Origin: a virus
Length of the DNA stretch: 24,456 nt
Virus record (IMG/VR): IMGVR_UViG_3300045993_000643
Coordinates: 1 to 24,456 of that record
Strand: one strand, 5' to 3'
A program made the translations under genes and the position numbers. Of this stretch, positions 2,794 through 24,456 are shown in pieces. The notes beneath the pieces are model-generated. The model made no database searches. It worked only from the letters and a program-made list of their open reading frames with translations, and was not told the DNA's origin. Positions within the stretch are counted from its first letter, which is position 1; every line of letters begins with the position of its first letter.

Positions 2794-3138
2794 ATGAAAC
2801 CAGAAAATAATGAAGCTAATCAGATAGTTGATAGGCTTAAGGACGTGTACAAAGTGACTACAGATACAGCACTCGGTGCGGAATTAGGAGTAACTAAACA
2901 TCATATTAATAACTGGAGAAGCCGTAACAGCCCTCCTTATGAAATTTGCTTGGCTATCGCCAAAGAAAAAAATATTGATTTGAACTGGTTACTGACGGGT
3001 AAAGGCGATATGTACCGCAATCAATTGAAAGAACAATCGCCGTCTTATCAATCCAAATCTATCGGGGCGTTAGAACAATTGTTCGACCGCGTTGAAACCC
3101 TTGAGCAACAACTGTCTGAAATGAGGAAACAAGCATGA
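2794..3138 (+). CDS. CI-type phage repressor (short, P2 C-like size)
   Basis: 114 residues. Residues about 8-68 match the phage CI repressor helix-turn-helix family: IVDRLKDVYKVTTDTALGAE with the recognition part LGVTKHHINNWRSRNSPPYE, then EKNIDLNWLLTGKGDMY. The C-terminal 30 residues (IGALEQLFDRVETLEQQLSE) have heptad spacing and probably dimerise. There is no LexA-like S24 protease domain, so it should not be RecA-cleavable, like the short P2 C protein. It should hold lysogeny by repressing the divergent early operon. It overlaps the next gene by ATGA at 3135-3138. Confidence 0.88.
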   Translation: MKPENNEANQIVDRLKDVYKVTTDTALGAELGVTKHHINNWRSRNSPPYEICLAIAKEKNIDLNWLLTGKGDMYRNQLKEQSPSYQSKSIGALEQLFDRVETLEQQLSEMRKQA

Positions 3139-3410
3139 ATACTGAAAACGATTTAATCATCAATGGCAGGGTGTTTGTCTTGACTGGATACACCTATTTT
3201 CCTGAACGGCTGGCTGAGTTGACCGCACAGATTGAACAGGCGGGTGGTGTGGTTGAGGAACGGGTATCAGAACGCACGCATTATTTGGTGTTGTCGCATG
3301 ATGATACTGATGAATGGAATAAGGATGAAATGGCAAAAGTGGATTATTTCATGGATACCAATCACGGGGTAATGCTTGGAATGCCCGCTGAAAATACGCT
3401 ATTTACATGA
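3135..3410 (+). CDS. Stand-alone BRCT-like domain protein
   Basis: 91 residues. The pattern INGRVFVLTGYTYFPERLAE, then IEQAGGVVEERVSERTHYLV, is the usual start of a BRCT domain as found at the C-terminus of NAD-dependent DNA ligase and in RFC1: a beta strand ending in TG, a helix, GG, and a strand with T-x-LV. The canonical late Trp is not obvious; the C-terminal part is acidic (DDTDEWNKDEMAKVDYF). BRCT domains bind DNA ends or phosphopeptides. It is translationally coupled to the repressor (4-base overlap) and precedes the terminator at 3751, so it should be expressed in the lysogen. Role unknown; protection of DNA ends or a lysogenic-conversion function is speculation. Confidence 0.78.
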   Translation: MNTENDLIINGRVFVLTGYTYFPERLAELTAQIEQAGGVVEERVSERTHYLVLSHDDTDEWNKDEMAKVDYFMDTNHGVMLGMPAENTLFT

Positions 3411-3935: not shown

Positions 3936-4009
3936 GTCATACCGCAACTTTTTGAAGCCCCTTTAACGTGTGCACATGACGTAAGATAAAATAATTATAA
4001 GTGATTGAT

Positions 4010-4999
4010 ATGTCTATAAAAAAGATAAAAGACCATTGGTTTTGTCAGATTGATAGAAAAGGTGTACCACGAGTCCGCAAATCGTTCGCTACTCTGGCAG
4101 AAGCTGCCATTTTTGAGCGTGATTATTTAGCTAAGGCGGCGGCTAAACCTGTTTTAAATGCGGATAGACGAAAGTTGAGTGAGTTGGTGGCGATTTGGTT
4201 TAAGTTTCATGGCATGAATTTAAGTGATGGGGAACGGCGGCGGTCTATTTTGTTGTCAATGGCTGTGGATTTGGGTGATCCAGTGGCGTGTGAGCTTACG
4301 CCCTCTCAGTTTTTGGATTACCGTTACCGCTGCACTTATTCGAATGGCACGCGGATTGCCTCAAAGACGTTTAATAATCGGCAGGGCTATTTGATGGCTG
4401 TGTATAACAAGTTACGCAAGCTACAGATTATTGATTATGTGTGTCCTATTTTGGATGTGGATGCAATTAAGGTGCATGAACGGCAGTTGAGTTATTTGTC
4501 AGGGCCACAAATTGAGTTGTTGTTTGATCGTCTGAAGCATGATTGTCGGAATACGTCGGTGTGGTGGATTGCTCAGGTGTGTATTCGGACGGGGGCGCGG
4601 TGGGGTGAGGCTGAGACGTTGCGGCGTAAGCAGTTGCATAATGAGCGGATTACGTTTGAGTTTACTAAATCAAAGAAGGTGAGGACTGTGCCGTTAGATG
4701 CTGCGTTTTATGCCTCGCTTTTGGAGTTTGCGAGAGGGAAAAATCCTGATGATAGGATTTTTAAGGATGGGATTACGGCGTTTAATCGGTGTGTTGCTCG
4801 GTGTGATCTGGAGTTTCCTGCTGGGCAAAAAACCCATATTTTACGCCATAGTTTTGCGTCGTATTTTGTGATGAACGGTGGTGATATTTTGTCGTTGCAA
4901 CGTATCCTTGGTCATAGTGATATTAAGATGACGCTTCGGTATGCGCATTTAGCCCCCGATCATTTGTTTGATGCAGTGAAGTTTAATCCGCTGGCGTAG
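4010..4999 (+). CDS. int: P2-type tyrosine integrase
   Basis: 329 residues from the ATG at 4010; a GTG nine bases earlier is also in frame, but the ATG start (MSIKKIKDHWFCQID) aligns best with the start of P2 Int. The catalytic set of a tyrosine recombinase is complete (numbering from 4010): Arg in TGARWGEA (about 197), Lys in TKSKKVRTVPL, His-x-x-Arg in THILRHSFAS (276 and 279), His in LGHSD (302) and the nucleophile Tyr in RYAHL (311). The ending DHLFDAVKFNPLA is typical of P2-group integrases. It should insert the phage at a tRNA-Ser gene, whose 3' end is found about 130 bases downstream of its stop. A terminator at 3751 separates it from the repressor operon. Confidence 0.95.
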   Translation: MSIKKIKDHWFCQIDRKGVPRVRKSFATLAEAAIFERDYLAKAAAKPVLNADRRKLSELVAIWFKFHGMNLSDGERRRSILLSMAVDLGDPVACELTPSQFLDYRYRCTYSNGTRIASKTFNNRQGYLMAVYNKLRKLQIIDYVCPILDVDAIKVHERQLSYLSGPQIELLFDRLKHDCRNTSVWWIAQVCIRTGARWGEAETLRRKQLHNERITFEFTKSKKVRTVPLDAAFYASLLEFARGKNPDDRIFKDGITAFNRCVARCDLEFPAGQKTHILRHSFASYFVMNGGDILSLQRILGHSDIKMTLRYAHLAPDHLFDAVKFNPLA

Positions 5000-5003
5000 G
5001 TGG

Positions 5004-5213
5004 TTGGCGGTCGATTGGCGGTGAAAACCGCCACTAATCGCCAGTTACCGCCATTGGTTTGTGTATTCATTCTGTAAGTCTTTGTTTTGGTTGGTGTGTT
5101 TTTTGTTTGTCGCTGTGTATTGAGTATTCGAACCCCTCTCTCTCCGCCATTAATTTATTGATATTTAAGATAAAAAATATATTTAATTTTAAATTGGCGG
5201 TAAATTTGGCGGT
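5004..5213. other. attP: Phage attachment site attP with tRNA-Ser 3'-end core and arm motifs
   Basis: The core at about 5127-5149 (TTCGAA then CCCCTCTCTCTCCGCCA) matches the 3' end of a proteobacterial tRNA-Ser: T-loop, acceptor strand and CCA. The upstream sequence does not make the rest of a tRNA, so it is a phage-carried fragment. TTGGCGGT occurs in direct orientation at 5004-5011 and 5015-5022 on the left and at 5194-5201 and 5206-5213 on the right. The inverse ACCGCCA occurs at 5027-5033 and 5047-5053. Paired arm-type sites on both sides of a core next to int are the hallmark of an uncut attP. The pair 5016-5022/5027-5033 could also form a hairpin with a GAAA loop. Confidence 0.75.
5127..5149 (+). 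other. att core: 3' fragment of tRNA-Ser
   Basis: The bases read TTCGAA followed by CCCCTCTCTCTCCGCCA, i.e. the T-loop, 3' T-stem strand, 3' acceptor strand and CCA of a tRNA-Ser whose gene would begin GGAGAGA. No matching 5' acceptor strand or anticodon arm lies within the preceding 100 bases, so this is not a functional tRNA. Confidence 0.72.
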
Positions 5214-5456: not shown

Positions 5457-5485
5457 AAAAAACTGTCATAATGTAGATAACAGTT
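5457..5485 (-). terminator. Rho-independent terminator of the late operon
   Basis: Read on the minus strand, AACTGTTAT pairs with ATGACAGTT (nine pairs with one G-U) around a 7-base loop at 5461-5485, and a run of T follows down to 5457. It overlaps the stop codon of the last late gene and would end the whole leftward transcript before attP. Confidence 0.82.
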
Positions 5486-7979
5486 AAATCACAATCTCAT
5501 TCATCCCCAAATTAGGTGCAGCGGATTCTATCAGTCCGTTGCGCACATAATAATTCGCCCCTACCGTTCCTGATCCCCGCGCGGTTATCACGCCACCATC
5601 TAATAAAGTTAGTATTGATACATCCCCTACAGTTGACACCAACTGCCCAACCAATAGCGGTTGTGCAGGTAATAAATTCAGCAATTTAGAATAAGCATTA
5701 GTAGTGTTTTCACCCACCGTGATGGTTTGCGAGACTTTACCAAATTCCACATTGATAGCCACGCCGTTAATGATTGCCCGTTCGTTGTTGACTTCTAACA
5801 GCCAACCGACGCGAGCCAGTGGAAAATCGCCACCTAGAAAGGTAGTGACTGACGTGGTGACAGGTTGCGTGGCTTGCCCTGCTAATAGTCTTTCACCTAA
5901 TGCCCTTGCTGCCACCACATCGGTTATGAGTGAGTTGGATACCGTGGGTGCAAGCACATCGCCCGCCGTGCCTGTCAACCGACAAAATGCCAGCACACCG
6001 TCCTTTTCACCATGCACATACACACCGTTGATTGGCGATTGCGTGCGTGATTCCACACCGATTGACGCGATCGCAGAATCGGGTATGACTAAATCCGCGT
6101 TAATGCCTGACGCGTGGAAGTTCCACGGCAATACAGGGTAGCGCGGTTGCATGGTTAAGACTTGTGTGTTTCGACTGGGTACTAAAACTGCACCGATGGA
6201 TTGCGCAATGGTGGCTAACGCTTGTAATAAGGTTTGTTGGGTATAGCTGAATGAATTGGTAGGCACAACCCACGGCGTGGCACATTGCCAGTTAATCGTC
6301 CAGCCCGTCGGTAGTAAAGAATCTGCTATTTGCTGTACGGTCAACTCACTGCCAGCGGTGTAACTGGTTAGCCGTTGGTACGGTGATCCAAGCAATGCAG
6401 ACAATGAACGCCCCTGAAGCGTAATATCGGTTTTACCAAAACTACGCTGTTCGGGTATTTTCTCGATTAAGACAATCCAGTTGTAACCATTGATGGTAAT
6501 TGATAACTGCACGGGCACATCATCGGTCATTGTCACTAAGGACAACGCGGCTTTATCGGCTAACACGCCGCCGAATACCCACGCAAAAGAATCGACATCG
6601 TAACTCAGTGATAATTTACTGAGCGGTACAGGATGATTGCCGATAACGGTAACAACAGAAATTGTGTGATGCACGGTGTATGCCTCTTTGGTTGGAATAG
6701 TGAGGGTTTCTTGATTGGTAGGCGGTTCAGGCGGTGGGCGTGGTCTATCAATGTGCGGACTTGTACCAAAAGGCGGCTTGATTGTGTCAGTTAATAAAGC
6801 ACAAAAGTGTCGCAAGATTAATTGATCGGGTGCGATCGTGGCATGATGACTGGTTGAATAAATGCCATGCACCTGTGCTTCACACAACTCAATAATTGCT
6901 TGTGTTCCAAAATCAAAAACAGCGATCGCAGAATAGTTAGTATCGGTAAAATTAAACGCGGCGTGTGGTGTGTAGGGATTAACGCTATCGCTATAAACTG
7001 CTTTAAGTAGCGCGTAAGTCTGTTGTGACATATCCGCTAAACTGAGCGCGGTGGCAACCTCATTAAAAGTTAAAACATCCTGGACGGATAACGTTCCATA
7101 ACTAAGCGGCGTGGCTTGTTGTTGTTTAGCCGTCGTGTTTTGCGTGTTAAAAACCACGGTATTGATAATGCTTAGCGTCGCATTAGTGAGCGGGTTGGCT
7201 TGTTCTTGTGTTATGGCAGTGGCAAACCATAAGGCGGTTAAATCAATAACCCAAGAATCGGTTTTAACGACGATTGGCAAGGTATCGTTTAATAAAGCCA
7301 GTGTATCGACTTGATTAAAACTAAAGATATTTATCTGGGTTTGAATGTTACAAATGAGCGGTTGTGCTTGTTGTATGATAGTGATTGATTGTGTAGCGGT
7401 AACACGATGCACGTTAATATCATAAATACCTTGCCCACTGCCAATGACATCATCAAGCGTGTAATGGCTACTGCCCACAGTATTAATGATACTGCCAACA
7501 CCTGCACCAATAACATCATCCAACGTGTAATTGACCACACCGTCATTAGCAACATGGGCAATCGCACTGCCAATAACATCATCCAGCGTGTAATGGACAC
7601 TGCCAAAAGCATTAATGACACTGCCAACGCCCACGCCAATAACATCATCCAGCGTGTAATTAACTGATCCACTAACGATTAAATCGCCGTTAAAATCAAA
7701 TACTGGGTACGGTGTGTAATTAGTATCGCGAAAATCAAAAACTGTGTGATAAATGGGCGCGATAACTGTACCGATGGCAACCATCGTTACATCGTCAAGC
7801 GTGTAATTAACAGTACCGCTGGTAATCGGCGCGGTAACAGTACCGACTGCTACCATCACCACATCGTCAAGCGTGTAATTAGCAGTACCGATTACATCAG
7901 TTGCTTCAGCAAAAACAAAGGTGCTTGATGGTGTGTAATCCGTTGCTACAAACTCAAATAAACCGTTTGGTGTATACAT
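5484..7979 (-). CDS. Baseplate hub-like tail protein with N-terminal YTLDDV repeat array
   Basis: 831 residues in two parts joined by a Pro-rich linker (about 402-422, with RPRPPPEPP). Residues 1-360 hold six copies of YTLDDV (start near 35, 59, 108, 130, 151 and 173, period 21-25) and five Y-T-P-x-x-x-F-x-F motifs (near 2, 15, 88, 336, 349), the latter known from many phage structural proteins. Residues about 430-831 resemble a tail hub or late-control-D-like protein: LSYDVDSFAWVFGG, ITLQGRSLSALLGSP, LTVQQIADSLLPTGWTINW, and the ending with ENTTNAYSKLLNLLPAQPLL. It is the last gene of the late operon and its stop overlaps the terminator. No clear Shine-Dalgarno precedes the ATG, so it may be coupled to the gene 6 bases upstream. 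Probably a baseplate or host-contact component at the tail tip. Confidence 0.75.
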   Translation of the reverse strand: MYTPNGLFEFVATDYTPSSTFVFAEATDVIGTANYTLDDVVMVAVGTVTAPITSGTVNYTLDDVTMVAIGTVIAPIYHTVFDFRDTNYTPYPVFDFNGDLIVSGSVNYTLDDVIGVGVGSVINAFGSVHYTLDDVIGSAIAHVANDGVVNYTLDDVIGAGVGSIINTVGSSHYTLDDVIGSGQGIYDINVHRVTATQSITIIQQAQPLICNIQTQINIFSFNQVDTLALLNDTLPIVVKTDSWVIDLTALWFATAITQEQANPLTNATLSIINTVVFNTQNTTAKQQQATPLSYGTLSVQDVLTFNEVATALSLADMSQQTYALLKAVYSDSVNPYTPHAAFNFTDTNYSAIAVFDFGTQAIIELCEAQVHGIYSTSHHATIAPDQLILRHFCALLTDTIKPPFGTSPHIDRPRPPPEPPTNQETLTIPTKEAYTVHHTISVVTVIGNHPVPLSKLSLSYDVDSFAWVFGGVLADKAALSLVTMTDDVPVQLSITINGYNWIVLIEKIPEQRSFGKTDITLQGRSLSALLGSPYQRLTSYTAGSELTVQQIADSLLPTGWTINWQCATPWVVPTNSFSYTQQTLLQALATIAQSIGAVLVPSRNTQVLTMQPRYPVLPWNFHASGINADLVIPDSAIASIGVESRTQSPINGVYVHGEKDGVLAFCRLTGTAGDVLAPTVSNSLITDVVAARALGERLLAGQATQPVTTSVTTFLGGDFPLARVGWLLEVNNERAIINGVAINVEFGKVSQTITVGENTTNAYSKLLNLLPAQPLLVGQLVSTVGDVSILTLLDGGVITARGSGTVGANYYVRNGLIESAAPNLGMNEIVI
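7446..7877 (-). repeat. Coding repeat array (YTLDDV units)
   Basis: The repeated DNA motif catcatccagcgtgtaat and close variants appears six times on the plus-strand reading, at roughly 63-75 base intervals with one larger gap near 7660-7785. The four units between 7446 and 7656 are most alike (VINAFGS, IINTVGS spacers), suggesting recent tandem duplication; the two at 7789-7877 form a second subfamily (MVAVGTV, MVAIGTV). Confidence 0.85.
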
Positions 7980-13841: not shown

Positions 13842-13963
13842 CGTTTACTAATATGCCGTGCGACACAATACGCATAGCCTTTTTCAAAACTGCTAAGCAT
13901 CATTAACAGAAAAATAATAACGGGCAATGCTAAAAGGACACAGACGGCTAAGAGTGTTTTCAT
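13838..13963 (-). CDS. 41-residue single-span membrane protein
   Basis: This very short frame begins with an ATG overlapping the TGA of the tape measure gene and ends overlapping the ATG of the next gene. The product (MKTLLAVCVLLALPVIIFLL, then MMLSSFEKGYAYCVARHISK and R) is one long hydrophobic helix at residues 3-24 and a short basic tail. It could be a signal-peptide-like or membrane-anchored mini-protein, for example a lysis or superinfection factor; this is speculation. The two ATGA junctions support that it is translated. Confidence 0.65.
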   Translation of the reverse strand: MKTLLAVCVLLALPVIIFLLMMLSSFEKGYAYCVARHISKR

Positions 13964-16900
13964 AATTTTGTGACTCCGCTAATCGTGTCCAATTTACTAA
14001 AAAAATCTTCTGGATTAGATCCGTTAAATTGCCCTGATACTGACTGCCCACTGGGTGCGACAAATTTAATGGTGGACACTTTGCCAGCGGTTTGTAGTGC
14101 GGCTGAATTACCTATGCTTAAATTACCACTGCTGACTGTTGGGAGTCTCATAGGTGGCGAAACACTGGAACTAGCTGTCGTTGTCGAAAAAGACGGTAGT
14201 TGTGCGGATGACGTAACGCTATTCTGATTAGTTTGAGATATAGGCACGGTGTCTGCTTTAGCTTGCGCATCATCTAAAGCAAGTTGTGCCTTGGCTTTCG
14301 CGTCAAACCCAACCGCATTGGTTAGGTCTTTGGAAAGTTTTAAGTTTTTCATATAGTCACTGAGAAATTCCAGCGGCAACGCATTATCCCGTAAATACTT
14401 TTCAGCGTTCATTTCAAAACTTAACCGCGCTGCATCCTCACTTTGGTATGCCTGACCTTGCCCGCCGTGTGTCCACGATAACTGTGTAAACGGTTGGTCA
14501 AAAAACGCGGATACTTCCTCAAATTTCTTCTTTTTTAATTCAGCGGCTTTGGCTTTGTAATCACCAATAACGCCACCTTCACTACGCAGAACAATGGTAG
14601 CGTCCCCTTTTTTCAGCGCATCAAATGCTTCCACACCTTCGCGCCGTGTGGTGTCCTTATCAGTAACGTATTCGCCATCTTCTGCCAATAATAACCGTCT
14701 ATCTCCGCCACCATATCCAGCTAATGCACCGCCCGCGCGTTGTATTGCACCGCCCGCCGCTCTACGCAATACGCCAATAATCCCACCGTCTTGTCTAGCT
14801 TGGATAGGTTCAGCGGGTTGTGTGCTACCACCACGATTTTCAACGACGTTTATGGTGTGGGTGCTTTGCGTGGGTTGTTTGATCCGTGCGATTGCATCAT
14901 CAACCACAACAGTGTTAGCGGTGATTTTTAATTCAGTACCATTTTTTACCGCCGTTTCAATATCGGCAATTCTTGCCCTGACTTGGTCAAGTGTTAAAAC
15001 GCGTTTATCGGCTTCTGCCTTGGCAATATCCGCTTGTTTCGTCTCAGCGGCGGCGGCTTGTTCTAAGGCACTCTTTGTTAAATCGACGGTTTTATTGTAC
15101 GTTTCACGGGCATTTTTTGCATTGGTGAAATTCCAGCCTGTTTTTTCATTTTCAGTCGCTTCAGCGGTGGCGATTTGCTTGGCTAAATCAATGGTTTTTT
15201 TGCCCAATTCAGCGGCGGCGGTAAATTCACCATCGGCAATGAGCTGTTTTATTTTTGCGGTATCAGTGGTTAATTGCCGTTTTTTAAGTTCACTGAGCTC
15301 TGAACTGCTTAAGCCTTGTTGATCTAATGCCTGTAATGTGCCTAACCGTGCTTGTTCAATGCCTTCAATTTCTTTGATAAAGCCGATTGCTTTGTCGCGG
15401 TGGTCTTTTTCTAAGGCAACAAGGTTTTTTATTTGATTCGCGGTGGCGGTTTCAATTTCAATTAACGTGGTACGTTTCGCAAGTAACTCGTCTTGTGTAA
15501 ATTGATGTTTCGCTGTGCTTTCTTGCGTTAAATCCGCTAATTCTGCATTGAGACGTTGCTTAGTCAGTAAGCCAATTTGGTTTTCAGTGTTGATTTTTTG
15601 TTGAAAGGAAAAATCATCAATCTGTTTTTTAGTGACGGCAGTGCTGGTATACAGCCTTATTTTTTCAGCTTCATTATCCCTAATTTGCTGTATTTCACGG
15701 TCACGAACGGATTTTGCTAAGTCATCCTGAGCTTTTGCGGCGGTTTTAGTGTCAACAGGTTCGCCTGTCGTGGGGTCAGTACCTGTATCAGCGGCGCGGG
15801 TATCTTTTTGAGCGAGCGTTTTAGGGTCTTTTTGCAGGTTTTTAGCGGTAGTTTCTTCAAACGTTTTGACCGCGTTTTTAGAATCTTCCCCGATTTGTTT
15901 AAAGGAGTTAGAAACTTGCGCAACATTATTTTTAACTCTATCAAGGTAAGTGTTTAAGCTATTGCCTATGCCTTTACCTGAAAAAACATCCTCTGTGAAT
16001 TGACTAAATGCGGCAATGCTTTCGACCGCATAACCCACCACCGCCCCAATACTTTGACCAAAGGCTTTAAATAAGCCGCCTGTGTTGACGACTACCACGC
16101 CAATAAATTCAAGCGAGTTTTTTAACGCCCCTGTTAAGCCTTCTGCTATGCCTAGCGATTTAAGCCATTCGTCTAACGCGGTTTTGCCTTGGCTGAAAAC
16201 CTCGGCAATCGGTTGAAAACCTTCAATAATGGTTTTCCACATTGCCCCGATGACTTCTCCAACGGTGGCTGTGGTTTCACCCCATTTGGTTGTCATCGGT
16301 AACACGTTGGCAATGGCTAAACCCACGGCGGCAATTGCACCCACGGCTAAGCCTAACGTGCCACCGACTAAAAATGACATTGCCGTTTTTAGAATACCAA
16401 AGGCACTTGCACCGCGTGCCATTGCGAATAATGATGCAGTGGTTGCCATCACATTAGCATTGAGACTAATTAATACGCCGCCTAATTGTGCAAACTTTGT
16501 CATTAAGCCAGCGGGGGCTAAGCCCACCAGTGACATTGCAAGACCAAGCAAGCGAAACGCCCCGCCCAATGAAATAACGACGGCGGTTATTGCACCAAAG
16601 GTTTTAATAATTGGGTGGTTAATCGATAAATCAGTAAAGACGTTTAGTAATTTAGTAAACGCATTAGTGATTAATTTAATAGCGGGTAAAAAAGTATCAG
16701 TCAAACTCAATGAAAAACTATTCCATGAGTTTTTCAGTAGGGTTAAACCAGAATCTTCTGTCGCTAATTTTTTAAGGTAAGCATCACGAACACTGCCACT
16801 GTAAATCGTAGCATCGGATGTTTGGTTGATTGCCTCTTTTAACAGTTGGGTGTTATCGACTAGCTTTGTTAAAGCAACCGAATCTTGACCTTTGCCTAAT

Positions 16901-17898
16901 AATTTATCAGCAAGGTCTAACCGCCCCACCTTGCTAAAGCTGTACATCGTATCAAGCAATGCTAACAACGTTGGCATAGGCTTGGCTTTAATATCGACGG
17001 CTAATTTGTCCGCCGATGTACCCATCATTGCTAAGGCTTGTTGAAATTCAGGCGTTTGATTTTTAGCGTTTTGCAGTGAGTTTAACAGGTTGATAATGCC
17101 TGTGCGTGCAACTTCTGGAGCTGCCCCTAGTGATACCATCGTACCTGACAGGGCAATGGTTTCACCTTTCAACAAGCCAAATTGTTGACCCGCAGAAGCC
17201 GCGCCCGTAGCCATTACTTCAAAAATATCAGTTTCTGATACGTTAGCCAGTGTGTCCGCTGTCGTGTTGACCTGATCGCTAAAACTGACCAATTGATCTT
17301 CTGATAAATGCAGTAATGCTTGTACCGTTCCCAGTTTGTTAGCGAGTTCTTCAGCGGGTATACCTAACGCCACCACGCCTTCTGCGACCGTGCGAACAAA
17401 TTGTGGAATGTCTTGTGCGGATTTACCCGCTGAACCAGCGGCTTTTGCAATGGCGTAGAGTTGTTCAGTAGGGATTGCTAAATCCACCGTTGCCATTGTA
17501 TCAATGGTGGTTTTTAATTCTTTGAGCTGGTCATCTGTAGCGTTAATCGTGCGTGATGCTTCACTAAATGCGGACTCACTGGCTATATTTTTTTTGAGAC
17601 TGGTAAAGGTAGCGGCGGTGTTAGCGGCGAAAAGAGCGAGTGAAACAACAGCGGACTGAATATCTTGTTTGAATTCTGCCAAGGTAATATTTTTGGCAAT
17701 TTCACCGATTTGTTTAAGCAGTGGAATAGATGATATTGCAAATGCAGAAAAACTTTTATTTGATGATTCAGCGGCGTTGCCTGTATCAACAGTTGCTTGC
17801 TCAACATCTTTTAGGCTTGCCGTGGTTTGTTCAAGCGCGGCGTTAGAGTCTTTATTATCAGCCGTGATGTTTAGTTTTAGGTCTAAATCAGTAGCCAT
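13960..17898 (-). CDS. Tail tape measure protein
   Basis: 1312 residues. Residues about 110-400 match the TP901-type tape measure core (IPTEQLYAIAKAAGSAGKSA, FVRTVAEGVVALGIPAEELA, FEVMATGAASAGQQFGLLKG). A hydrophobic stretch lies at about 430-535 (AITAVVISLGGAFRLLGLAM and following), then charged coiled-coil at about 680-1000, and a Gly-rich segment with LLLAEDGEYVTDKDT near 1075-1090. It sets tail length; at about 1.5 angstrom per residue this would predict a tail near 190-200 nm. A good ribosome site (AAGGAATAATT) precedes the ATG. Its length and the lack of a sheath gene favour a long non-contractile tail. Confidence 0.92.
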   Translation of the reverse strand: MATDLDLKLNITADNKDSNAALEQTTASLKDVEQATVDTGNAAESSNKSFSAFAISSIPLLKQIGEIAKNITLAEFKQDIQSAVVSLALFAANTAATFTSLKKNIASESAFSEASRTINATDDQLKELKTTIDTMATVDLAIPTEQLYAIAKAAGSAGKSAQDIPQFVRTVAEGVVALGIPAEELANKLGTVQALLHLSEDQLVSFSDQVNTTADTLANVSETDIFEVMATGAASAGQQFGLLKGETIALSGTMVSLGAAPEVARTGIINLLNSLQNAKNQTPEFQQALAMMGTSADKLAVDIKAKPMPTLLALLDTMYSFSKVGRLDLADKLLGKGQDSVALTKLVDNTQLLKEAINQTSDATIYSGSVRDAYLKKLATEDSGLTLLKNSWNSFSLSLTDTFLPAIKLITNAFTKLLNVFTDLSINHPIIKTFGAITAVVISLGGAFRLLGLAMSLVGLAPAGLMTKFAQLGGVLISLNANVMATTASLFAMARGASAFGILKTAMSFLVGGTLGLAVGAIAAVGLAIANVLPMTTKWGETTATVGEVIGAMWKTIIEGFQPIAEVFSQGKTALDEWLKSLGIAEGLTGALKNSLEFIGVVVVNTGGLFKAFGQSIGAVVGYAVESIAAFSQFTEDVFSGKGIGNSLNTYLDRVKNNVAQVSNSFKQIGEDSKNAVKTFEETTAKNLQKDPKTLAQKDTRAADTGTDPTTGEPVDTKTAAKAQDDLAKSVRDREIQQIRDNEAEKIRLYTSTAVTKKQIDDFSFQQKINTENQIGLLTKQRLNAELADLTQESTAKHQFTQDELLAKRTTLIEIETATANQIKNLVALEKDHRDKAIGFIKEIEGIEQARLGTLQALDQQGLSSSELSELKKRQLTTDTAKIKQLIADGEFTAAAELGKKTIDLAKQIATAEATENEKTGWNFTNAKNARETYNKTVDLTKSALEQAAAAETKQADIAKAEADKRVLTLDQVRARIADIETAVKNGTELKITANTVVVDDAIARIKQPTQSTHTINVVENRGGSTQPAEPIQARQDGGIIGVLRRAAGGAIQRAGGALAGYGGGDRRLLLAEDGEYVTDKDTTRREGVEAFDALKKGDATIVLRSEGGVIGDYKAKAAELKKKKFEEVSAFFDQPFTQLSWTHGGQGQAYQSEDAARLSFEMNAEKYLRDNALPLEFLSDYMKNLKLSKDLTNAVGFDAKAKAQLALDDAQAKADTVPISQTNQNSVTSSAQLPSFSTTTASSSVSPPMRLPTVSSGNLSIGNSAALQTAGKVSTIKFVAPSGQSVSGQFNGSNPEDFFSKLDTISGVTKL

Positions 17899-17900
17899 AA

Positions 17901-18284
17901 TTATTCCTTATAAAGCCCTTGAACGGCTTGAAAAAATGCCCAGCCGTATTGCCAACAGTTAATGTGTCCGTGATGGATTAAAACTGCACAGGTATGATTT
18001 ATCTCATCAGCAATGCTTTTTAATGAGCGACTGCTGCCATCACCGCTGCCTGAATAAAAAGCCTCATTGAAGGTGATAAACACTGCAATGTATTTGGTTA
18101 GTAAATCGGTTTTGGATTGGATTAAATCGCTGTTGGATAACAGCGCGGTTTGAAAATGGATGCTATCCACCTCGTCTGAATTTAAATCACCCGACTGCGT
18201 TAAAACGTCGATCGCACGTTTTAAATCAATCGGGCGTATTTCGCGGACAATTACGCCATTGTTAAGAGCTAATTCTCCGCGCAT
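17901..18284 (-). CDS. Possible tail assembly chaperone
   Basis: 127 residues, acidic-neutral, helical, ending CWQYGWAFFQAVQGLYKE. It lies between the tail tube gene (2 bases away) and the tape measure (2 bases), the usual place of the tail assembly chaperone that coats the tape measure. No convincing slippery site with a long second frame was found, so no G/GT frameshift product is claimed. Called on position only. Confidence 0.5.
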   Translation of the reverse strand: MRGELALNNGVIVREIRPIDLKRAIDVLTQSGDLNSDEVDSIHFQTALLSNSDLIQSKTDLLTKYIAVFITFNEAFYSGSGDGSSRSLKSIADEINHTCAVLIHHGHINCWQYGWAFFQAVQGLYKE

Positions 18285-18286
18285 GA

Positions 18287-19042
18287 CTAATTCAGATAAC
18301 GGAAGTAATGCGTGGACGATTCGCCGTCTTGTAAAATCGGCGTACCTTTAAAAGTGAATTCAGACAGTTTATCGTCCAGAAAATCAAATGGCTTATCACT
18401 GGTTAAAACCAGATAAGGAATTTCCAGTCTAAAGCGGCGTTTTTGCGCAATGTTAGTACCGCTAAAAATAAATCGCCCTGTGATTTGTGCGACTGTTTCC
18501 CCTGCCACATCCCAGCCACTGATTGAACCATAGGCATAACTGACTTTAATCGCCTGTGCTGATGCAACAGTCGTGCCTTTTTTGATGATATAACCTTCGT
18601 TATAGTCAATCGTGTAATCCGTACCTTCAACGTAAGTGACAATGCCTGCTGAATCTTTAGCGACGACAGAACCTGCCGTTATCGCTTGATAAGCCAATTT
18701 GATGTAAATGCCGTTTGCACCAATGGTGATAGGTTCAGAGGTGGCAGTACCACCGCCCTGACTAAATGTGGTATCCGTTCCCATCATTTGCATAGACATC
18801 TTGGTACGATCAAAGCCTTTTACTGTCCAAGTAAAATCCATTGCATCACGTTCAGCCACTTGCGCACTGACCATGCCGCGCTGATTCTCGTCTTTGCTTT
18901 TGTCGGTCAGCATTTTGGAGTTAGGCTTGGTTGTAATGCTGTTTGAGCCTGTGATTTTTTGCAGGCCCGTTGAAATGTCGCTGGCATCGTAACGGTCAAA
19001 TAACACCGTCCCGTCTGCGTAAAAAGTATCATTCTTTGCCAT
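18287..19042 (-). CDS. Major tail tube protein
   Basis: 251 residues. It starts MAKNDTFYADGTVLFDRYDA and has the beta-rich, Gly/Thr-rich make-up of a tail tube protein, with the segment VTYVEGTDYTIDYNEGYIIK seen in several siphophage tube proteins and an ending rich in F, L and T. It precedes the putative chaperone and tape measure, the classic order. Not related in any visible way to the P2 gpFII tube, and no sheath gene is next to it. Confidence 0.75.
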   Translation of the reverse strand: MAKNDTFYADGTVLFDRYDASDISTGLQKITGSNSITTKPNSKMLTDKSKDENQRGMVSAQVAERDAMDFTWTVKGFDRTKMSMQMMGTDTTFSQGGGTATSEPITIGANGIYIKLAYQAITAGSVVAKDSAGIVTYVEGTDYTIDYNEGYIIKKGTTVASAQAIKVSYAYGSISGWDVAGETVAQITGRFIFSGTNIAQKRRFRLEIPYLVLTSDKPFDFLDDKLSEFTFKGTPILQDGESSTHYFRYLN

Positions 19043-19047
19043 GAGTG

Positions 19048-19209
19048 TTATGCCTGTTTAGGTTTAATGACATCGGCAATTACGCCGTATTTTTTTAACC
19101 AGTCCGCCTCATCACTGGTAACAATGATTTTTTCACCCGCTGGTAAAAAAATACCGTTATGGGTGTGCGGTCTGATAAGGGTTACTTCTTGTTCGTCTGG
19201 GGTTGCCAT
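19048..19209 (-). CDS. DUF7210-like small phage protein
   Basis: 53 residues (begins MATPDEQEVTLIRPHTHNGI, then FLPAGEKIIVTSDEADWLKK). The pattern V-T-L-(I/K)-x-P-H-T-H-x-G...x-x-(Y/L)-P-A-G...D-E-A-x-W-L-x-x-x-G matches a widespread short phage protein now filed as DUF7210, usually encoded among head-tail genes. An AGGA site lies 7 bases before the ATG. It fills the gap between gpS and the tail tube gene. Confidence 0.72.
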   Translation of the reverse strand: MATPDEQEVTLIRPHTHNGIFLPAGEKIIVTSDEADWLKKYGVIADVIKPKQA

Positions 19210-19218
19210 GAGTTTTTC

Positions 19219-19839
19219 CTATAGTGCTGATTCAATTTCATCAATAATGCTTTGTCTGATTTGCTGTAGATCATCATCGGTAACAGCTAAAAAAGAACGT
19301 GCGGGCAATGCAACCGTCCAACTTGTCCGTGTTGTGATGCCGTGCCACGCTCTTAATTTACGCACCAAAAACCCCGCCTGTGAGATGGTGTATTTTTGGG
19401 TAATCATTTTTACACTGGGTTTTTTATTGCCAAGTCTAAAGCCCAGATTAATTAATTCAGTCGCTTGCCTAATGGTTGCGGGACTGGTGGTATTGCTATT
19501 ATTCCCCGATTTAGCCGTATTATTAAACGTCTGTGACGCTCCGAATTGCTGTTTATAAGCAATGGCACTGGTGCTTTTATCAGTGAAGCTAATCACCGCT
19601 TGATTACCAGACACCGATACCACTAAACGATCTTTTAAGCCTAATAGCATCTTGCGCTTATTGGCGTTGTTCTTACGTTCTTTAAATGCCGAGCCTGTGA
19701 CATCGGTTTGCGTGTCAATGCGCTGTTTTGCCGAGGCTAACAGTATGTTTGCTGTTTTAGCCACTAAGCGTTGTTGAGCAAGCTCGCTTAGTTTTTCAAA
19801 CTTACTCTGTACGGCTTCTACGCCATTCAACTGAATCAT
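19219..19839 (-). CDS. S: Tail completion protein gpS (P2-like)
   Basis: 206 residues. Matches the phage virion morphogenesis/tail S family: KRKMLLGLKDRLVVSVSGNQ, IAYKQQFGASQTF, TSPATIRQATELINLGFRLG, ISQAGFLVRKLRAW and LPARSFLAVTDDDLQQIRQS. In P2, gpR and gpS complete the tail and join it to the head. It overlaps the gpR gene by 38 bases, a strong sign of co-translation. Longer than P2 gpS because of an insert near residues 105-130. Confidence 0.87.
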   Translation of the reverse strand: MIQLNGVEAVQSKFEKLSELAQQRLVAKTANILLASAKQRIDTQTDVTGSAFKERKNNANKRKMLLGLKDRLVVSVSGNQAVISFTDKSTSAIAYKQQFGASQTFNNTAKSGNNSNTTSPATIRQATELINLGFRLGNKKPSVKMITQKYTISQAGFLVRKLRAWHGITTRTSWTVALPARSFLAVTDDDLQQIRQSIIDEIESAL

Positions 19840-20332
19840 AATCAGTCTCTAGTATGTAACTGGGTTCCAAGGCTATCGATTCATCATCGGTCGCGTTGCG
19901 ATAATGCACCCCGTTAATGAGGTACTTGCCTGTTACATCAGCAATGCCAAAAACGGGTTCACGAAACGTCACTAATAATTCAATCGAAAAGGTTTCACTG
20001 GATTCTTCGTCGATAATCGGATCAATATCGGGTAATGGTATTGGCTTACCGTCTTGTCTGCTGACTTTAAAGCGGTATGTAATGGGGTCGTATTCCTGTA
20101 TCCAACAAGCTAGGTCAATCAAAAACGCTAGCATCCCGTAATCCATCGGAAAGCGTTCAATGCGAATGATTCCTTGATAACTTTGGTCATAAAAACAAAC
20201 CTCAGTGTCACTTAAGACAATGCCACTGGGTTTGTATTCTTCAATGATGTGCCAATCCTGTATATTTTCCTCACCGACAATGGCTAACGCATGAATGAAG
20301 CCTCTTAATGCTGCAAGTTTTCTGAGTTTCAT
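19802..20332 (-). CDS. R: Tail completion protein gpR (P2-like)
   Basis: 176 residues. The centre (RIERFPMDYGMLAFLIDLAC, WIQEYDPITYRF) and the FSIELLVTFRE segment followed by V.G.Y.INGVHYRNA fit the P2 gpR family, whose members have D...LL..V..WL...QPD and a central IS.SLMLTER-like strand. It overlaps gpL by ATGA and gpS by 38 bases. Tail terminator/completion role by homology to P2. Confidence 0.78.
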   Translation of the reverse strand: MKLRKLAALRGFIHALAIVGEENIQDWHIIEEYKPSGIVLSDTEVCFYDQSYQGIIRIERFPMDYGMLAFLIDLACWIQEYDPITYRFKVSRQDGKPIPLPDIDPIIDEESSETFSIELLVTFREPVFGIADVTGKYLINGVHYRNATDDESIALEPSYILETDYDSVEWRRSRTE

Positions 20333-20823
20333 ATCAGATACACCCCAACCGTCCCGCTAATGGTTGGACGCTGTGAAATACCAAACACATCAAACAAAAA
20401 CTGCACTGCCTGAATGGAACGCTCTAACCAGTATTGGTAGGTGTCTTCTGATTCTTTAGCCAGATTCTCAGCCTCTGGTTTGCGTATGAAGGTCTTGAAC
20501 TGCTGTAATAATTGCGCTTTGGCATAACAAAAAACTGCCTCTTTGTATTTTTTAATTAATATCGGTTCGTCACCAATGGCTTCAGGATGTACGGTGCAGT
20601 AATCCTCTAACGTTGATTCAGTCATCGCAGCGCGGAATGCGCTTAACTGTGCATTGATTTCTATCATTGCTAATTGCAAACCATCGGTAATGACGAATGC
20701 TTTGTATTCGCTAGGGATGCGATAAATAGCGACAAATTCACCAACGACCAAATCAGGGTAAAAACCATTATTAGCAATGGGTTCTAAGTTGTCTATTTCA
20801 GGACGACCTGTGTAATTTGTCAT
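20329..20823 (-). CDS. L: Head completion protein gpL (P2-like)
   Basis: 164 residues. The order NNGFYPDLVVGEFVAIYRIP, AMIEINAQLSAFRAAM, PILIKKYKEAVFCYAKAQLL and the acidic W/R-rich end (YQYWLERSIQAVQFLFD) fit P2 gpL, the neck protein that completes the head after packaging. It lies directly before R and S, as head-tail connector genes do, but is separated from M by a fibre cassette. It overlaps the membrane protein by ATGA. Confidence 0.82.
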   Translation of the reverse strand: MTNYTGRPEIDNLEPIANNGFYPDLVVGEFVAIYRIPSEYKAFVITDGLQLAMIEINAQLSAFRAAMTESTLEDYCTVHPEAIGDEPILIKKYKEAVFCYAKAQLLQQFKTFIRKPEAENLAKESEDTYQYWLERSIQAVQFLFDVFGISQRPTISGTVGVYLI

Positions 20824-21149
20824 TTCAAATCGTCTCGTAAATCAACACGTCCGCGCTTTTCTATGACACTGCTTAATAACACACTGAGTTTATTAAACGC
20901 TTCTGTCGATTCTTTACGATCCGCCGCTGCCATAACGGTCATCTTGTCGATTTGAGTCGTAAATTGCAGCGTTACTTTTTCGATATTCGCATCATGCGCC
21001 GTGTTAATACGCTCAATTTGTGCCGTGTGTTCAGTATCTTTGCGGTTTTGCTCTCGAATTAACCACCAGATAAATAAGAGCAATATGACGCATAACCCGC
21101 CGAATGCGCCCGATTCCATTATTTTCTGTGATGCTTGTTCTGGGTTCAT
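20820..21149 (-). CDS. Membrane-anchored coiled-coil protein, holin candidate
   Basis: 109 residues. One hydrophobic helix at about 16-33 (GGLCVILLLFIWWLIR) is followed by a long polar helix (EHTAQIERINTAHDANIEKV and on) and a basic tail (KRGRVDLRDDLK). This layout is frequent in phage proteins near fibre or lysis genes. A single-span holin is possible; no endolysin gene is visible in the window, so the lysis role is unproven. It is 4 bases from the collar protein gene. Confidence 0.55.
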   Translation of the reverse strand: MNPEQASQKIMESGAFGGLCVILLLFIWWLIREQNRKDTEHTAQIERINTAHDANIEKVTLQFTTQIDKMTVMAAADRKESTEAFNKLSVLLSSVIEKRGRVDLRDDLK

Positions 21150-21153
21150 AAAT

Positions 21154-21726
21154 TTATGCTGTCCTTACCCATCGGTAGACGACTATATACGGCTGCAAGT
21201 TGTTGTGTGCAGAGGAAGCGTTGGCTGCTGTGTTAGCAGGCACTATCAGTGTGAGAGAACCACCAGCTGAATAGCTTAAGGATAAATTTGTCGTTCCTCC
21301 AGAATTAAGTCCAACTGAATTACCGCTAGCATCTTTAACATTAGGATGCGTATGAGCTGGAACGCCGTTTTCTGCACCTGTTAATAAATGTGTTTTTTCA
21401 CCGCCCGTTTCGCCATTAACATCAAACTCTGTTTGAGCTGTATCAATGGCGACAGTTACGCGCCCAGTGCCAAATGCTGCCCATGTTCCAAATCCTAACA
21501 AGGTAGCTGGATTAGTCGATACGTTAAACTCCCTAATCGTTCCAATCGGATTTAATGTACTTGCCAATGCGGTTAAATCATCTAAACCAGCAAAGGTATG
21601 GTCCTTGTCTTGTATCGTCCATGTCCGCGCAGCCGTTGTCGCATTAACAAACGAATTAACAAACGTTGCCGCTGTATTTTTAAGCTTCAATACCGCGACT
21701 TCTAACTCTGTGCCTAAGGATTTCAT
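21154..21726 (-). CDS. Tail fibre / collar-domain protein
   Basis: 190 residues. Residues about 65-190 match the C-terminal part of phage tail collar and gp10-like baseplate proteins: IREFNVSTNPATLLGFGTWA, GETGGEKTHLLTGAENGVPA, HTHPNVKD and the ending HNNLQPYIVVYRWVRTA. The HTHP and HNNLQPY motifs bind metal in known fibre tips. N-terminal 60 residues (VLKLKNTAATFVNSFVNATT) would trimerise or attach. It starts in TAATG overlapping the fibre stop. Confidence 0.85.
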   Translation of the reverse strand: MKSLGTELEVAVLKLKNTAATFVNSFVNATTAARTWTIQDKDHTFAGLDDLTALASTLNPIGTIREFNVSTNPATLLGFGTWAAFGTGRVTVAIDTAQTEFDVNGETGGEKTHLLTGAENGVPAHTHPNVKDASGNSVGLNSGGTTNLSLSYSAGGSLTLIVPANTAANASSAHNNLQPYIVVYRWVRTA

Positions 21727-22511
21727 TAGCCTAAAACGAATACATTGAATTGATTGGTAGTTGGTGCTGAAGCGAATTTCACAGTGATACTGTTCGTAGT
21801 CGTCAACTCAATATCGGCTTGTACAATGTCGTAAGGACTCGCAACGCGAGAAACCGTTACTGCGATATTTTTAGTGCCTAAGTTGTGTGTAACAGTGTAT
21901 GACGTTGCTGAAGCATCGCCGATCGTCGTGTTGTACTTAAGCGGTTTACCTGACCACGTTTTTAACTTTAATGGTGTAACAATGCGTAAATCATCCGTAC
22001 CCGCATCGGTTTCTGATTGGGTTGCGATTTCTGCGATACCTGCAATCGTTTCGCTAGCGGCGGGGGCTGTTGTACCAAATGAGACAAAGACCACGTTGCC
22101 AGAGTCGAGGGTAAAATTCACTGTCGTTTGTCGAAAGGTAGCGTTCGCACTCGTACCTTCTTCAACCGTTAGCGTTGCCATTTCTAATTCGACGGAGGTA
22201 TTGGCATCTAACGCCCGCGTCATTGCTGTCGCTGCACCATTCCAGATATAAATGCCGTTGGCTGGCTGGCTAGTCTGATTCATGACTAACACGCGGTCAT
22301 TCACTGCCATGCTAATACCATCAATCGTCGCACCTGTTGATGCTAAATTAATATTGGATTGTGTCGCTACCCGCGCACTGTCTTTCCAGTTAATCCCTTC
22401 AATCGACGCTTTTAATTGCGCGACCGTTACCGCGTCCTGATCGGCTGATCCATCAACCAAATTTTTAATTTTTGCTACGCTGTCTAAATCTAAGTCACTT
22501 AAAAATTTCAT
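21726..22511 (-). CDS. Tail fibre protein
   Basis: 261 residues. N-terminal FLSDLDLDSVAKIKNLVDGS with VTVAQLKA is the standard phage fibre head. Residues about 60-150 hold VNDRVLVMNQTSQPANGIYI and a module common in fibres; residues 159-183 hold the short phage tail repeat (IAGIAEIATQSETDAGTDDL with RIVTPLKLK). The end (YTVTHNLGTKNIAVTVSRVA) is a module shared with the gene upstream. AGGAAC lies before the ATG. Probably the main receptor-contact fibre with the collar protein. Confidence 0.87.
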   Translation of the reverse strand: MKFLSDLDLDSVAKIKNLVDGSADQDAVTVAQLKASIEGINWKDSARVATQSNINLASTGATIDGISMAVNDRVLVMNQTSQPANGIYIWNGAATAMTRALDANTSVELEMATLTVEEGTSANATFRQTTVNFTLDSGNVVFVSFGTTAPAASETIAGIAEIATQSETDAGTDDLRIVTPLKLKTWSGKPLKYNTTIGDASATSYTVTHNLGTKNIAVTVSRVASPYDIVQADIELTTTNSITVKFASAPTTNQFNVFVLG

Positions 22512-22520
22512 GGGATGTTC

Positions 22521-22850
22521 CTAGTTACATTGTGCGATACCAGCCGTGGCGATCGCGAGTGAGATAATTGACTGATTGCTGTTTGGATGCGTAATTTCGG
22601 CAAAAAACTTAACGCTACCAACGGTTAGTAATTCAATGGATGGGTACTTACCAAGATTATGATTAATCGTCCAGGTCGTTGCGGGTGTTGTTTGAGTGTG
22701 TCGATAGCTCGCATCTCCTGATGCCCCATTTATCCCGCTTATGCCTACCTCAACTAAAATAACCTCGGTTTCTTTAGTAATTACAGTAACCGCAGTTTCG
22801 CCAATGCTGATATTAACGACAGGTTGCTCAATGACGATAATCTCAGTCAT
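22521..22850 (-). CDS. Fibre-associated protein with HNLG module
   Basis: 109 residues. Short beta-rich N-terminus, a short Gly-X-Y-like stretch (GISGINGASGDAS), then TWTINHNLGKYPSIELLTVG, a domain often found at the end of phage fibre or fibre-associated proteins. It overlaps the gene upstream by 8 bases. Probably attaches to the fibre complex. Confidence 0.7.
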   Translation of the reverse strand: MTEIIVIEQPVVNISIGETAVTVITKETEVILVEVGISGINGASGDASYRHTQTTPATTWTINHNLGKYPSIELLTVGSVKFFAEITHPNSNQSIISLAIATAGIAQCN

Positions 22851-23175
22851 AAGTCTGATCTTGAATAACAGTTAAGACGCTAGATTCAATCGTTAAAACG
22901 ATACCGTTTGAATACGTTAGTTCTAAATCGTATTTATATTTCCCAATAGCCCATACTTCTGACACAGTGGCTTCAATGCGTAAATCTATGCGCCCTTCTA
23001 ACGAGGTAATAATTATTTCTGCCGTGCTTGTACTCGCCGCATGGATTAATACTTGTTTAGCATCGCGTACATGAAGCCGTGCAGTTGCCCCTGTTAAGTC
23101 TATCGGGTTGTTATTGCTGTCTTTAACAATCCAGCTTCGCAACCAAGTATCACCTCTGAACATTTGTGCGGGCAT
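22843..23175 (-). CDS. Fibre-attachment protein, BppU N-terminus-like
   Basis: 110 residues. The pattern MFRGDTWLRSWIVKDSNNNP, then IDLTGATARLHVRD, GRIDLRIEATVSEVWAIGKY and KYDLELTYSNG is typical of small phage proteins related to the N-terminal domain of baseplate upper proteins, encoded beside tail fibres. It is the first gene of the fibre cassette and follows the 226-base non-coding segment. Two close ATGs (residues 1 and 5) are possible starts. Confidence 0.72.
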   Translation of the reverse strand: MPAQMFRGDTWLRSWIVKDSNNNPIDLTGATARLHVRDAKQVLIHAASTSTAEIIITSLEGRIDLRIEATVSEVWAIGKYKYDLELTYSNGIVLTIESSVLTVIQDQTYD

Positions 23176-23401
23176 CTTTAAATCACCAAAATAATAAAAG
23201 TCCGAAAATAAGGATGTCGGGCTGCTATGGAAACAGGATAGCGGTGTTGCAACACCTGCCCGACAAAAACTAAAAAACTGTCAATAAGATTTTTGTGTCG
23301 CCGTTTCTGGGTTTAGGATTAAATCCTAATGCCTGACTACGAAGTTCGCTAACATCAATGTAGTGTTATTAAACCCGCGTAGGCAGGGCTTGGAGGGTTC
23401 T
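23176..23401 (-). ncRNA. Structured non-coding segment in the late operon (candidate RNA element)
   Basis: No gene is visible in these 226 bases, in an operon where other gaps are at most about 70 bases. A compact three-way junction lies at 23215-23265: closing stem TGTCGGGC/GCCCGACA (8 pairs), arm GCTAT/ATAGC (23224-23228 with 23238-23242), and arm made by the palindrome GGTGTTGCAACACC (23243-23256). Further inverted pairs follow at 23313-23329 (TTAGGAT/ATCCTAA), 23309-23315 with 23370-23376 (GGGTTTA/TAAACCC) and 23330-23334 with 23381-23385 (TGCCT/AGGCA). No typical terminator T-run follows any stem on the minus strand. Identity unknown; it may regulate the fibre cassette or be an end of an inserted element. 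Confidence 0.5.
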
Positions 23402-24085
23402 TTATAATTTCGCTTGTGCTTTCGCCTTTAGCGTTTTAACACCCGCACCTTCTGGATTAATCGTTTCTGCTTGCGTACATAACGCCACGGTTTTTTCAAA
23501 GTTATTGTCAGCAAACTTAAACTTAGCGAGCAGCGCGTACATTTTGGACGCGACAGCAGGATGTAAATCCCAGTGATTCAAGTCGATTTGTTCAACCACT
23601 TGATCTAAATACGGACTAGCTGACTGATTATCGACTAGCAGTTTATTAGCCCAATCGTAGGTATAATCACAAACAAAGGTTTCCATCGTGCTATTAAACC
23701 GATCAGGCATTTGTTGCCGTTGGGCAATTAATACCAGGGCGAGTTTTAGTGCGTTTTCAATATCACCAATGTCGAATAACCAAATCATCACTTGGACGGC
23801 AATTGGGTTTGGGTAGTATTTACCGCTGGTAATGTAGTCTTCTACAAACGGTAAATACGCCGTCACCATATCGCGCTTAGCAATAATTTTGTCAGGTATA
23901 TCGGCAATGGCTTTTAATCGGACTAAGTCATTCGCCAATTGCGCTTGATAATGTATCAACGCACTGGGTTTCCCAGTTGCTGTAGCAGGTGCAACCGCGT
24001 TTTTATAGGGATGCTCAACGCCTTGTGCTTCTGCCTGTGCAATTTGAGCGGCTTTAACTGCATCTAACGGATTAATCCAGTTCAT
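23402..24085 (-). CDS. M: Terminase small subunit gpM (P2-like)
   Basis: 227 residues, close to the 247 of P2 gpM. Motifs of the family: YQAQLANDLVRLKAIADIPD, KIIAKRDMVTAYLPFVEDYI, VMIWLFDIGDIENALKLALV, QQMPDRFNSTMETFVCDY, and a C-terminal tetratricopeptide-like end (FEKTVALCTQAETINPEGAG). In P2-type phages gpM is the endonuclease subunit of the packaging terminase that cuts cos. It starts 2 bases after the capsid gene stop, as N-M do in P2. Confidence 0.88.
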   Translation of the reverse strand: MNWINPLDAVKAAQIAQAEAQGVEHPYKNAVAPATATGKPSALIHYQAQLANDLVRLKAIADIPDKIIAKRDMVTAYLPFVEDYITSGKYYPNPIAVQVMIWLFDIGDIENALKLALVLIAQRQQMPDRFNSTMETFVCDYTYDWANKLLVDNQSASPYLDQVVEQIDLNHWDLHPAVASKMYALLAKFKFADNNFEKTVALCTQAETINPEGAGVKTLKAKAQAKL

Positions 24086-24087
24086 GA

Positions 24088-24456
24088 CTAAGTGATATTT
24101 TCAATTAAGCAAGTGGCTTCTTCGTTGTAAACAACGTAGCCCGCATTGCTAGTGTTAAAATCTTTGATGCAATTGCCTTGTGGCCAGTCCATCACATTAC
24201 GGCGTACCGCACCCGATTGTGAGTAATATTGCAACCCTCCCACAGGAGCAACCAATACCGTGTTGTCTGGAAAAAACGGCGGTACAACGGCTTTTAACCC
24301 GCCGTAGGTTTGCAGTATTTCACCGCCATTTTGTAACAAAATCAGCTTTTCAGAACCACGTTCATAGGTTTGGGTGTAATACTTACCTTCTTCACGCGCA
24401 ACCAAGTTATCCGATACATACGCAACCAAGTTCTGACGTAACCACGGTTTAATACG
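24088..24456 (-). CDS. N: Major capsid protein gpN (P2-like), partial C-terminus
   Basis: The frame is open to the right edge of the window, so this is the last 122 residues of a longer protein; an internal TTG at 24429 is not the true start. The segment GGLKAVVPPFFPDNTVLVAP, then LQYYSQSGAVRRNVMDWPQG, and the end AGYVVYNEEATCLIENIT match the C-terminal part of P2 gpN (GGLxxxxPPxFPxxxxLVTxLxNLxxYYQxGxxRRxxxDNP...NxAYVVEDYG...ENI). N forms the capsid shell. The rest lies outside the window. Confidence 0.87.
   Translation of the reverse strand, partial: RIKPWLRQNLVAYVSDNLVAREEGKYYTQTYERGSEKLILLQNGGEILQTYGGLKAVVPPFFPDNTVLVAPVGGLQYYSQSGAVRRNVMDWPQGNCIKDFNTSNAGYVVYNEEATCLIENIT

What the first reader, a model, noticed from the sequence alone, without database searches (positions are those of the whole stretch)
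5004..5213. Apparently intact attP lies between int and the late operon, with phage genes on both sides
The sequence shows a tRNA-Ser 3'-end core (5127-5149) with TTGGCGGT pairs on both sides (5004, 5015 on the left; 5194, 5206 on the right), plus inverse copies at 5027 and 5047. In an integrated prophage, one arm would be replaced by host DNA; here both arms are present and the P2-type order (late genes, attP, int, C) is uninterrupted. The source is therefore a free phage genome, a plasmid-like episome, or the junction of tandem prophages.
Basis: partly seen in the sequence, partly recalled or inferred. Interest (0 to 1): 0.65.

Follow-up and report, generated by a model that had tools for sequence, protein, structure and literature searches.

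The report
Intact P2-type phage attachment site
The stretch is the complete DNA site with which an uncultured temperate bacterial virus inserts itself into the end of a host serine-tRNA gene; finding it whole means that this copy of the virus was not sitting alone inside a chromosome, but the site itself is of a well-known kind.

Summary
At 5004-5213 two TTGGCGGT pairs flank a 23-nt stretch equal to the 3' end (T-loop to CCA) of a tRNA-Ser gene, between an intact P2-type integrase and the end of the late genes. None of 300 simulated windows gave such a double pair. Relatives settle what it is: the arm pairs sit at nearly fixed distances from the CCA end (P about -145/-134, P' about +48/+60) in phages with different cores: the window, L002 and, with the P arm 12-13 bases further out, Fels-2, whose core is annotated as attP. 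L033 shows the attL form (complete tRNA-Ser gene plus P' arm); L021 and L024 show P arm and core without a P' arm, as expected of attR. So this is an intact attP, a new member of the known P2-type kind. The host was not found. Two details are mildly interesting: the P arm holds three inverted copies at 10-bp steps, and a sister record keeps an attP-like site about 6.5 kb from its integrase. Interest is low.

The parts
4001..4999 (+). int: P2-type tyrosine recombinase, catalytic R200, K223, H279, R282, H305, Y314 present
   Evidence: Pfam Int_N and Phage_integrase, phrog_1; the six residues fall in invariant columns of a 7-sequence alignment
5004..5022 (+). P arm: two direct TTGGCGGT copies 11 bp apart (at -144/-133 from the CCA end)
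5027..5053 (-). three inverted copies at 10-bp steps (5027 and 5047 exact, 5037 degenerate); with the forward pair they form a long imperfect inverted repeat
5127..5149 (+). core: 3' end of a tRNA-Ser gene (T-loop to CCA), the expected crossover region
5151..5163 (-). exact match to the IHF consensus WATCAANNNNTTR next to the core; one-mismatch matches at the same place in L002 and L033
   Evidence: consensus from PMC7581858. The window holds 5 exact matches in all, so weak alone
5194..5213 (+). P' arm: two direct TTGGCGGT copies 12 bp apart (+46/+58 from the CCA end)
2794..3138 (+). CI-type repressor, on the far side of int
   Evidence: Phage_CI_repr
5484..7979 (-). last late gene (tail protein), first phage gene on the other side of attP
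   Evidence: phrog_6079; 66% identical over 451 aa to LR797314.1

Best explanation
It is the intact attP of an uncultured temperate phage with P2-type head genes and a siphovirus-type tail. The integrase N-terminal domain would bind the TTGGCGGT pairs on both arms. IHF would bend the DNA beside the core. The catalytic domain would exchange strands within the 23-nt core against the 3' end of a host tRNA-Ser gene, which the phage core would rebuild, so the tRNA stays functional. Shown here: the sequence anatomy, its conserved geometry in relatives and the identity of the core. Inferred: protein binding, the exact crossover point, and that this copy was free, episomal or in a tandem.
For: Arm register relative to the CCA end is conserved while the core changes: window -144/-133 and +46/+58; L002 -145/-134 and +49/+60; L021 and L024 -145/-134; L033 +48/+60; Fels-2 -157/-146 and +49/+60. 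Fels-2 has an annotated attP at that core. L033 is an attL: complete tRNA-Ser(UGA) followed by a P' arm. L021 and L024 have P arm and core but no P' arm. The core equals a bacterial tRNA-Ser(GGA) 3' end. The double pair is not chance. A published description of P2-like phages has integrase binding two arm sites, each of two direct repeats, around the core (PMC3931495). The catalytic residues are intact.
Against: No host genome with this prophage was found: 0 of 369 sampled genomes of the class and 0 of 40 of the order of G242 carry an integrase at the cut-offs used. The core matched only 1 of 369 genomes. In the 5' T-stem the window agrees with the tRNA at only 3 of 5 bases (GAGTA against GAGGG). 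No binding or recombination was tested. The 3' flanks of L021 and L024 were not shown to be host DNA.
Confidence: 0.93

Rival explanations
1. The record is the junction of two tandem prophages rather than a free or circular phage genome. The attP-like site would be the att site between the two copies.
For: A tandem junction recreates the same P-core-P' order, so the sequence alone cannot exclude it.
Against: No second int, second core or host DNA lies in the 24 kb, though 24 kb is less than one phage genome. Tandem lysogens are rarer than free or induced phage DNA (general knowledge).
Confidence: 0.1
2. The TTGGCGGT pairs are sites for an excision factor (RDF, Cox/Apl type) rather than for integrase arms.
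For: RDF sites are also direct repeats one helical turn apart; phage 186 attP has five Apl sites at 10-11 bp spacing (PMC7498355).
Against: The same motif in the same orientation lies on both arms at a conserved distance from the core, as described for P2-like integrase arm sites, two direct repeats on each side (PMC3931495). The inverted array might still include such sites.
Confidence: 0.12
3. The inverted copies beside int (5027-5053) belong to a transcription terminator of int and have no part in recombination.
For: The stretch folds better than all 200 shuffles as DNA and as RNA and directly follows the int stop codon. Smp131 also has an inverted repeat there (PMC3931495).
Against: No run of T follows. 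The copies share the arm consensus and sit at 10-bp steps. In record G002 the forward-forward-reverse-reverse array is kept although int is about 6.5 kb away.
Confidence: 0.25

Closest known systems
Fels-2 attP (Peduoviridae, NC_010463)
   Same: int, then a TGGCGGCA pair 11 bp apart, then a tmRNA-type 3'-end core, then a pair at +49/+60, then late genes (ogr, D)
   Different: core of another gene; arm motif TGGCGGCA; no inverted copies in the P arm; P pair 12-13 bp further from the core; contractile P2-type tail
Smp131 attP (P2-like phage, PMC3931495)
   Same: attP downstream of int in a tRNA-derived 46-nt core, direct repeat pair and inverted repeat after int
   Different: arm motif AATTTTACCGG; no repeat pair found on the other side
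phiO18P (Aeromonas, DQ674738)
   Same: 44% identical integrase; a tRNA-Leu-like 3' end 44 bp after int
   Different: tRNA-Leu core; no TTGGCGGT arms
LR797314.1, uncultured freshwater phage
   Same: same tail module and CI repressor
   Different: no related int or attP between tail and CI; a different integrase elsewhere, so int plus attP look like an exchanged cassette

Membership tests
P2-type attP (Peduoviridae integrase subfamily) | site lies between the 3' end of int and the end of the late genes | tested here: met
P2-type attP (Peduoviridae integrase subfamily) | core identical to the 3' end of a tRNA or tmRNA gene (usual for tRNA-targeting members) | tested here: met
   the real host gene was not found
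P2-type attP (Peduoviridae integrase subfamily) | two arm sites, each of two direct repeats, on both sides of the core | tested here: met
   description in PMC3931495
P2-type attP (Peduoviridae integrase subfamily) | adjacent integrase of the same subfamily with intact catalytic residues | tested here: met
P2-type attP (Peduoviridae integrase subfamily) | IHF site | tested here: inconclusive
   exact consensus at 5151-5163, but 5 such matches in the window
P2-type attP (Peduoviridae integrase subfamily) | Int binds and recombines it with attB | not testable with these tools
   needs protein and DNA at the bench
Peduoviridae (whole phage) | contractile P2-type tail genes (sheath, tube) | tested here: not met
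   the late ORFs scanned match siphovirus-type tail families (tape measure phrog_28, Ig-like major tail protein phrog_807) and no sheath; a few small ORFs were not scanned and the record is partial

The most novel reading that the evidence does not exclude
The P arm is a conserved two-orientation array (two forward and two to three inverted copies in helical phase) bound throughout by Int or by Int plus its excision factor, and the attP of this integrase group can work far from int, as the sister record G002 suggests (attP-like site about 6.5 kb from int).
Probability: 0.15. Interest if true: 0.4.

Novelty: new member of a known kind. Interest (0 to 1): 0.22.

Why it matters
It shows that this record is not a lone integrated prophage and gives a testable attB (a tRNA-Ser 3' end) for an uncultured temperate phage. 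The arm motif with its fixed register to the core can be used to recognise attP, attL and attR of this integrase group in metagenomes, and so to read the lysogenic state of a contig.

Tried and rejected
Broad scan for CGCCA plus TTGGCSGT pairs in viral contigs: 52 stretches, of which only L033 was a real relative; none of the 48 newly fetched loci had a related integrase or a tRNA 3' end before the pair. Strict pattern of the left arm: no hit. The looser left-arm pattern gave 16 stretches, most of them looking like chance matches; L019, L021, L022 (= the record of L002), L024 and L033 were real. Host search by integrase protein in one class and one order: nothing. Genome contigs gave one distant relative, L008 at 40% identity, with a tRNA-Met gene after int. 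Rfam on the window: nothing. Plasmid and phage collections: integrases below 60% identity only.

Full report
What is there. The window is a linear IMG/VR virus record of 24,456 bases with no end redundancy. An intact P2-type tyrosine integrase ends at 4999; the late operon on the other strand ends at 5484. Between them lie two TTGGCGGT pairs (5004/5015 and 5194/5206), inverted copies at 5027, 5037 (degenerate) and 5047, and a 23-nt core at 5127-5149. The paired motif never appears in 100 shuffles, and no simulated window of 300 held a comparable double pair.

What the core is. TTCGAACCCCTCTCTCTCCGCCA is the T-loop-to-CCA end of tRNA-Ser. It occurs exactly in complete tRNA-Ser(UGA) genes of four phage records and in a tRNA-Ser(GGA) gene of one of 369 sampled genomes of the class, G242. 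The window has no tRNA gene, so this is a fragment, as in an attP.

Relatives. L002 (integrase 61% identical) has the same arms around a different core that ends in CGCCTCCACCA, which looks like a tmRNA 3' end (the gene was not identified). L021 and L024 (63-64%) have the P arm and a tRNA-Ser type core but no P' arm, as expected of an integrated prophage end; their flank was not shown to be host DNA. L033 has a complete tRNA-Ser(UGA) gene followed by a P' arm, an attL. Measured from the CCA end, the arms fall at -144/-133 and +46/+58 in the window, -145/-134 and +49/+60 in L002, -145/-134 in L021 and L024, +48/+60 in L033, and -157/-146 and +49/+60 in Fels-2. The core of Fels-2 is annotated as attP. 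More distant integrases of this group have other motifs after int but again 11-bp spacing (L008 GTTGACA, PfAC03 AATTCGG).

Mechanism. From established knowledge of tyrosine integrases (PMC2951348) and P2-like phages (PMC3931495), Int would bind the arm pairs with its N-terminal domain and the core with its catalytic domain. An IHF consensus lies at 5151-5163. These steps are inferred. The direct repeats could in principle be RDF sites, as in phage 186 (PMC7498355), but their presence on both arms at a fixed register favours Int.

State of the molecule. Both arms being present excludes a single integrated copy at this site. Free phage DNA, an episome and a tandem junction all remain; free or induced phage is the most likely on general grounds. 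No host was found.

Oddities. The int-attP stretch looks like a cassette: the freshwater phage LR797314.1 shares the tail module and the CI repressor but has neither a related integrase nor TTGGCGGT arms between tail and CI. Record G002 (64% integrase) carries the same 23-nt core (28 nt equal to the G242 tRNA) with TTGGCCGT arms at -113/-103 and +58/+70, shifted by about three and one helical turns, and the site lies between a baseplate gene and the portal side, about 6.5 kb from int. Its int ends 44 bases from the contig end, so a second site there cannot be excluded.

Verdict. A correct and careful observation of an ordinary thing: an intact P2-type attP in a partial phage genome.

Noticed in passing
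L015 and L005 (record G002), L005:2444-2629: An attP-like site with the same tRNA-Ser core and TTGGCCGT arms lies about 6.5 kb from the integrase gene, between a baseplate gene and a small ORF, instead of next to int.
   Followed up: partly
5004-5053: Forward and inverted copies of the arm motif form a long imperfect inverted repeat at 10-11 bp phase right after the int stop codon; similar arrays exist in L002, L019, L021, L024 and G002.
   Followed up: partly
13960-24456: P2-type terminase small subunit and capsid genes are joined to siphovirus-type tail genes (tape measure, Ig-like major tail protein).
   Followed up: partly
3135-3410: A small BRCT-domain protein is encoded between the CI repressor and int.
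   Followed up: no
L003, L004, L006, L007: Four viral contigs with large tRNA arrays carry a tRNA-Ser(UGA) whose 3' end equals this attP core.
   Followed up: no
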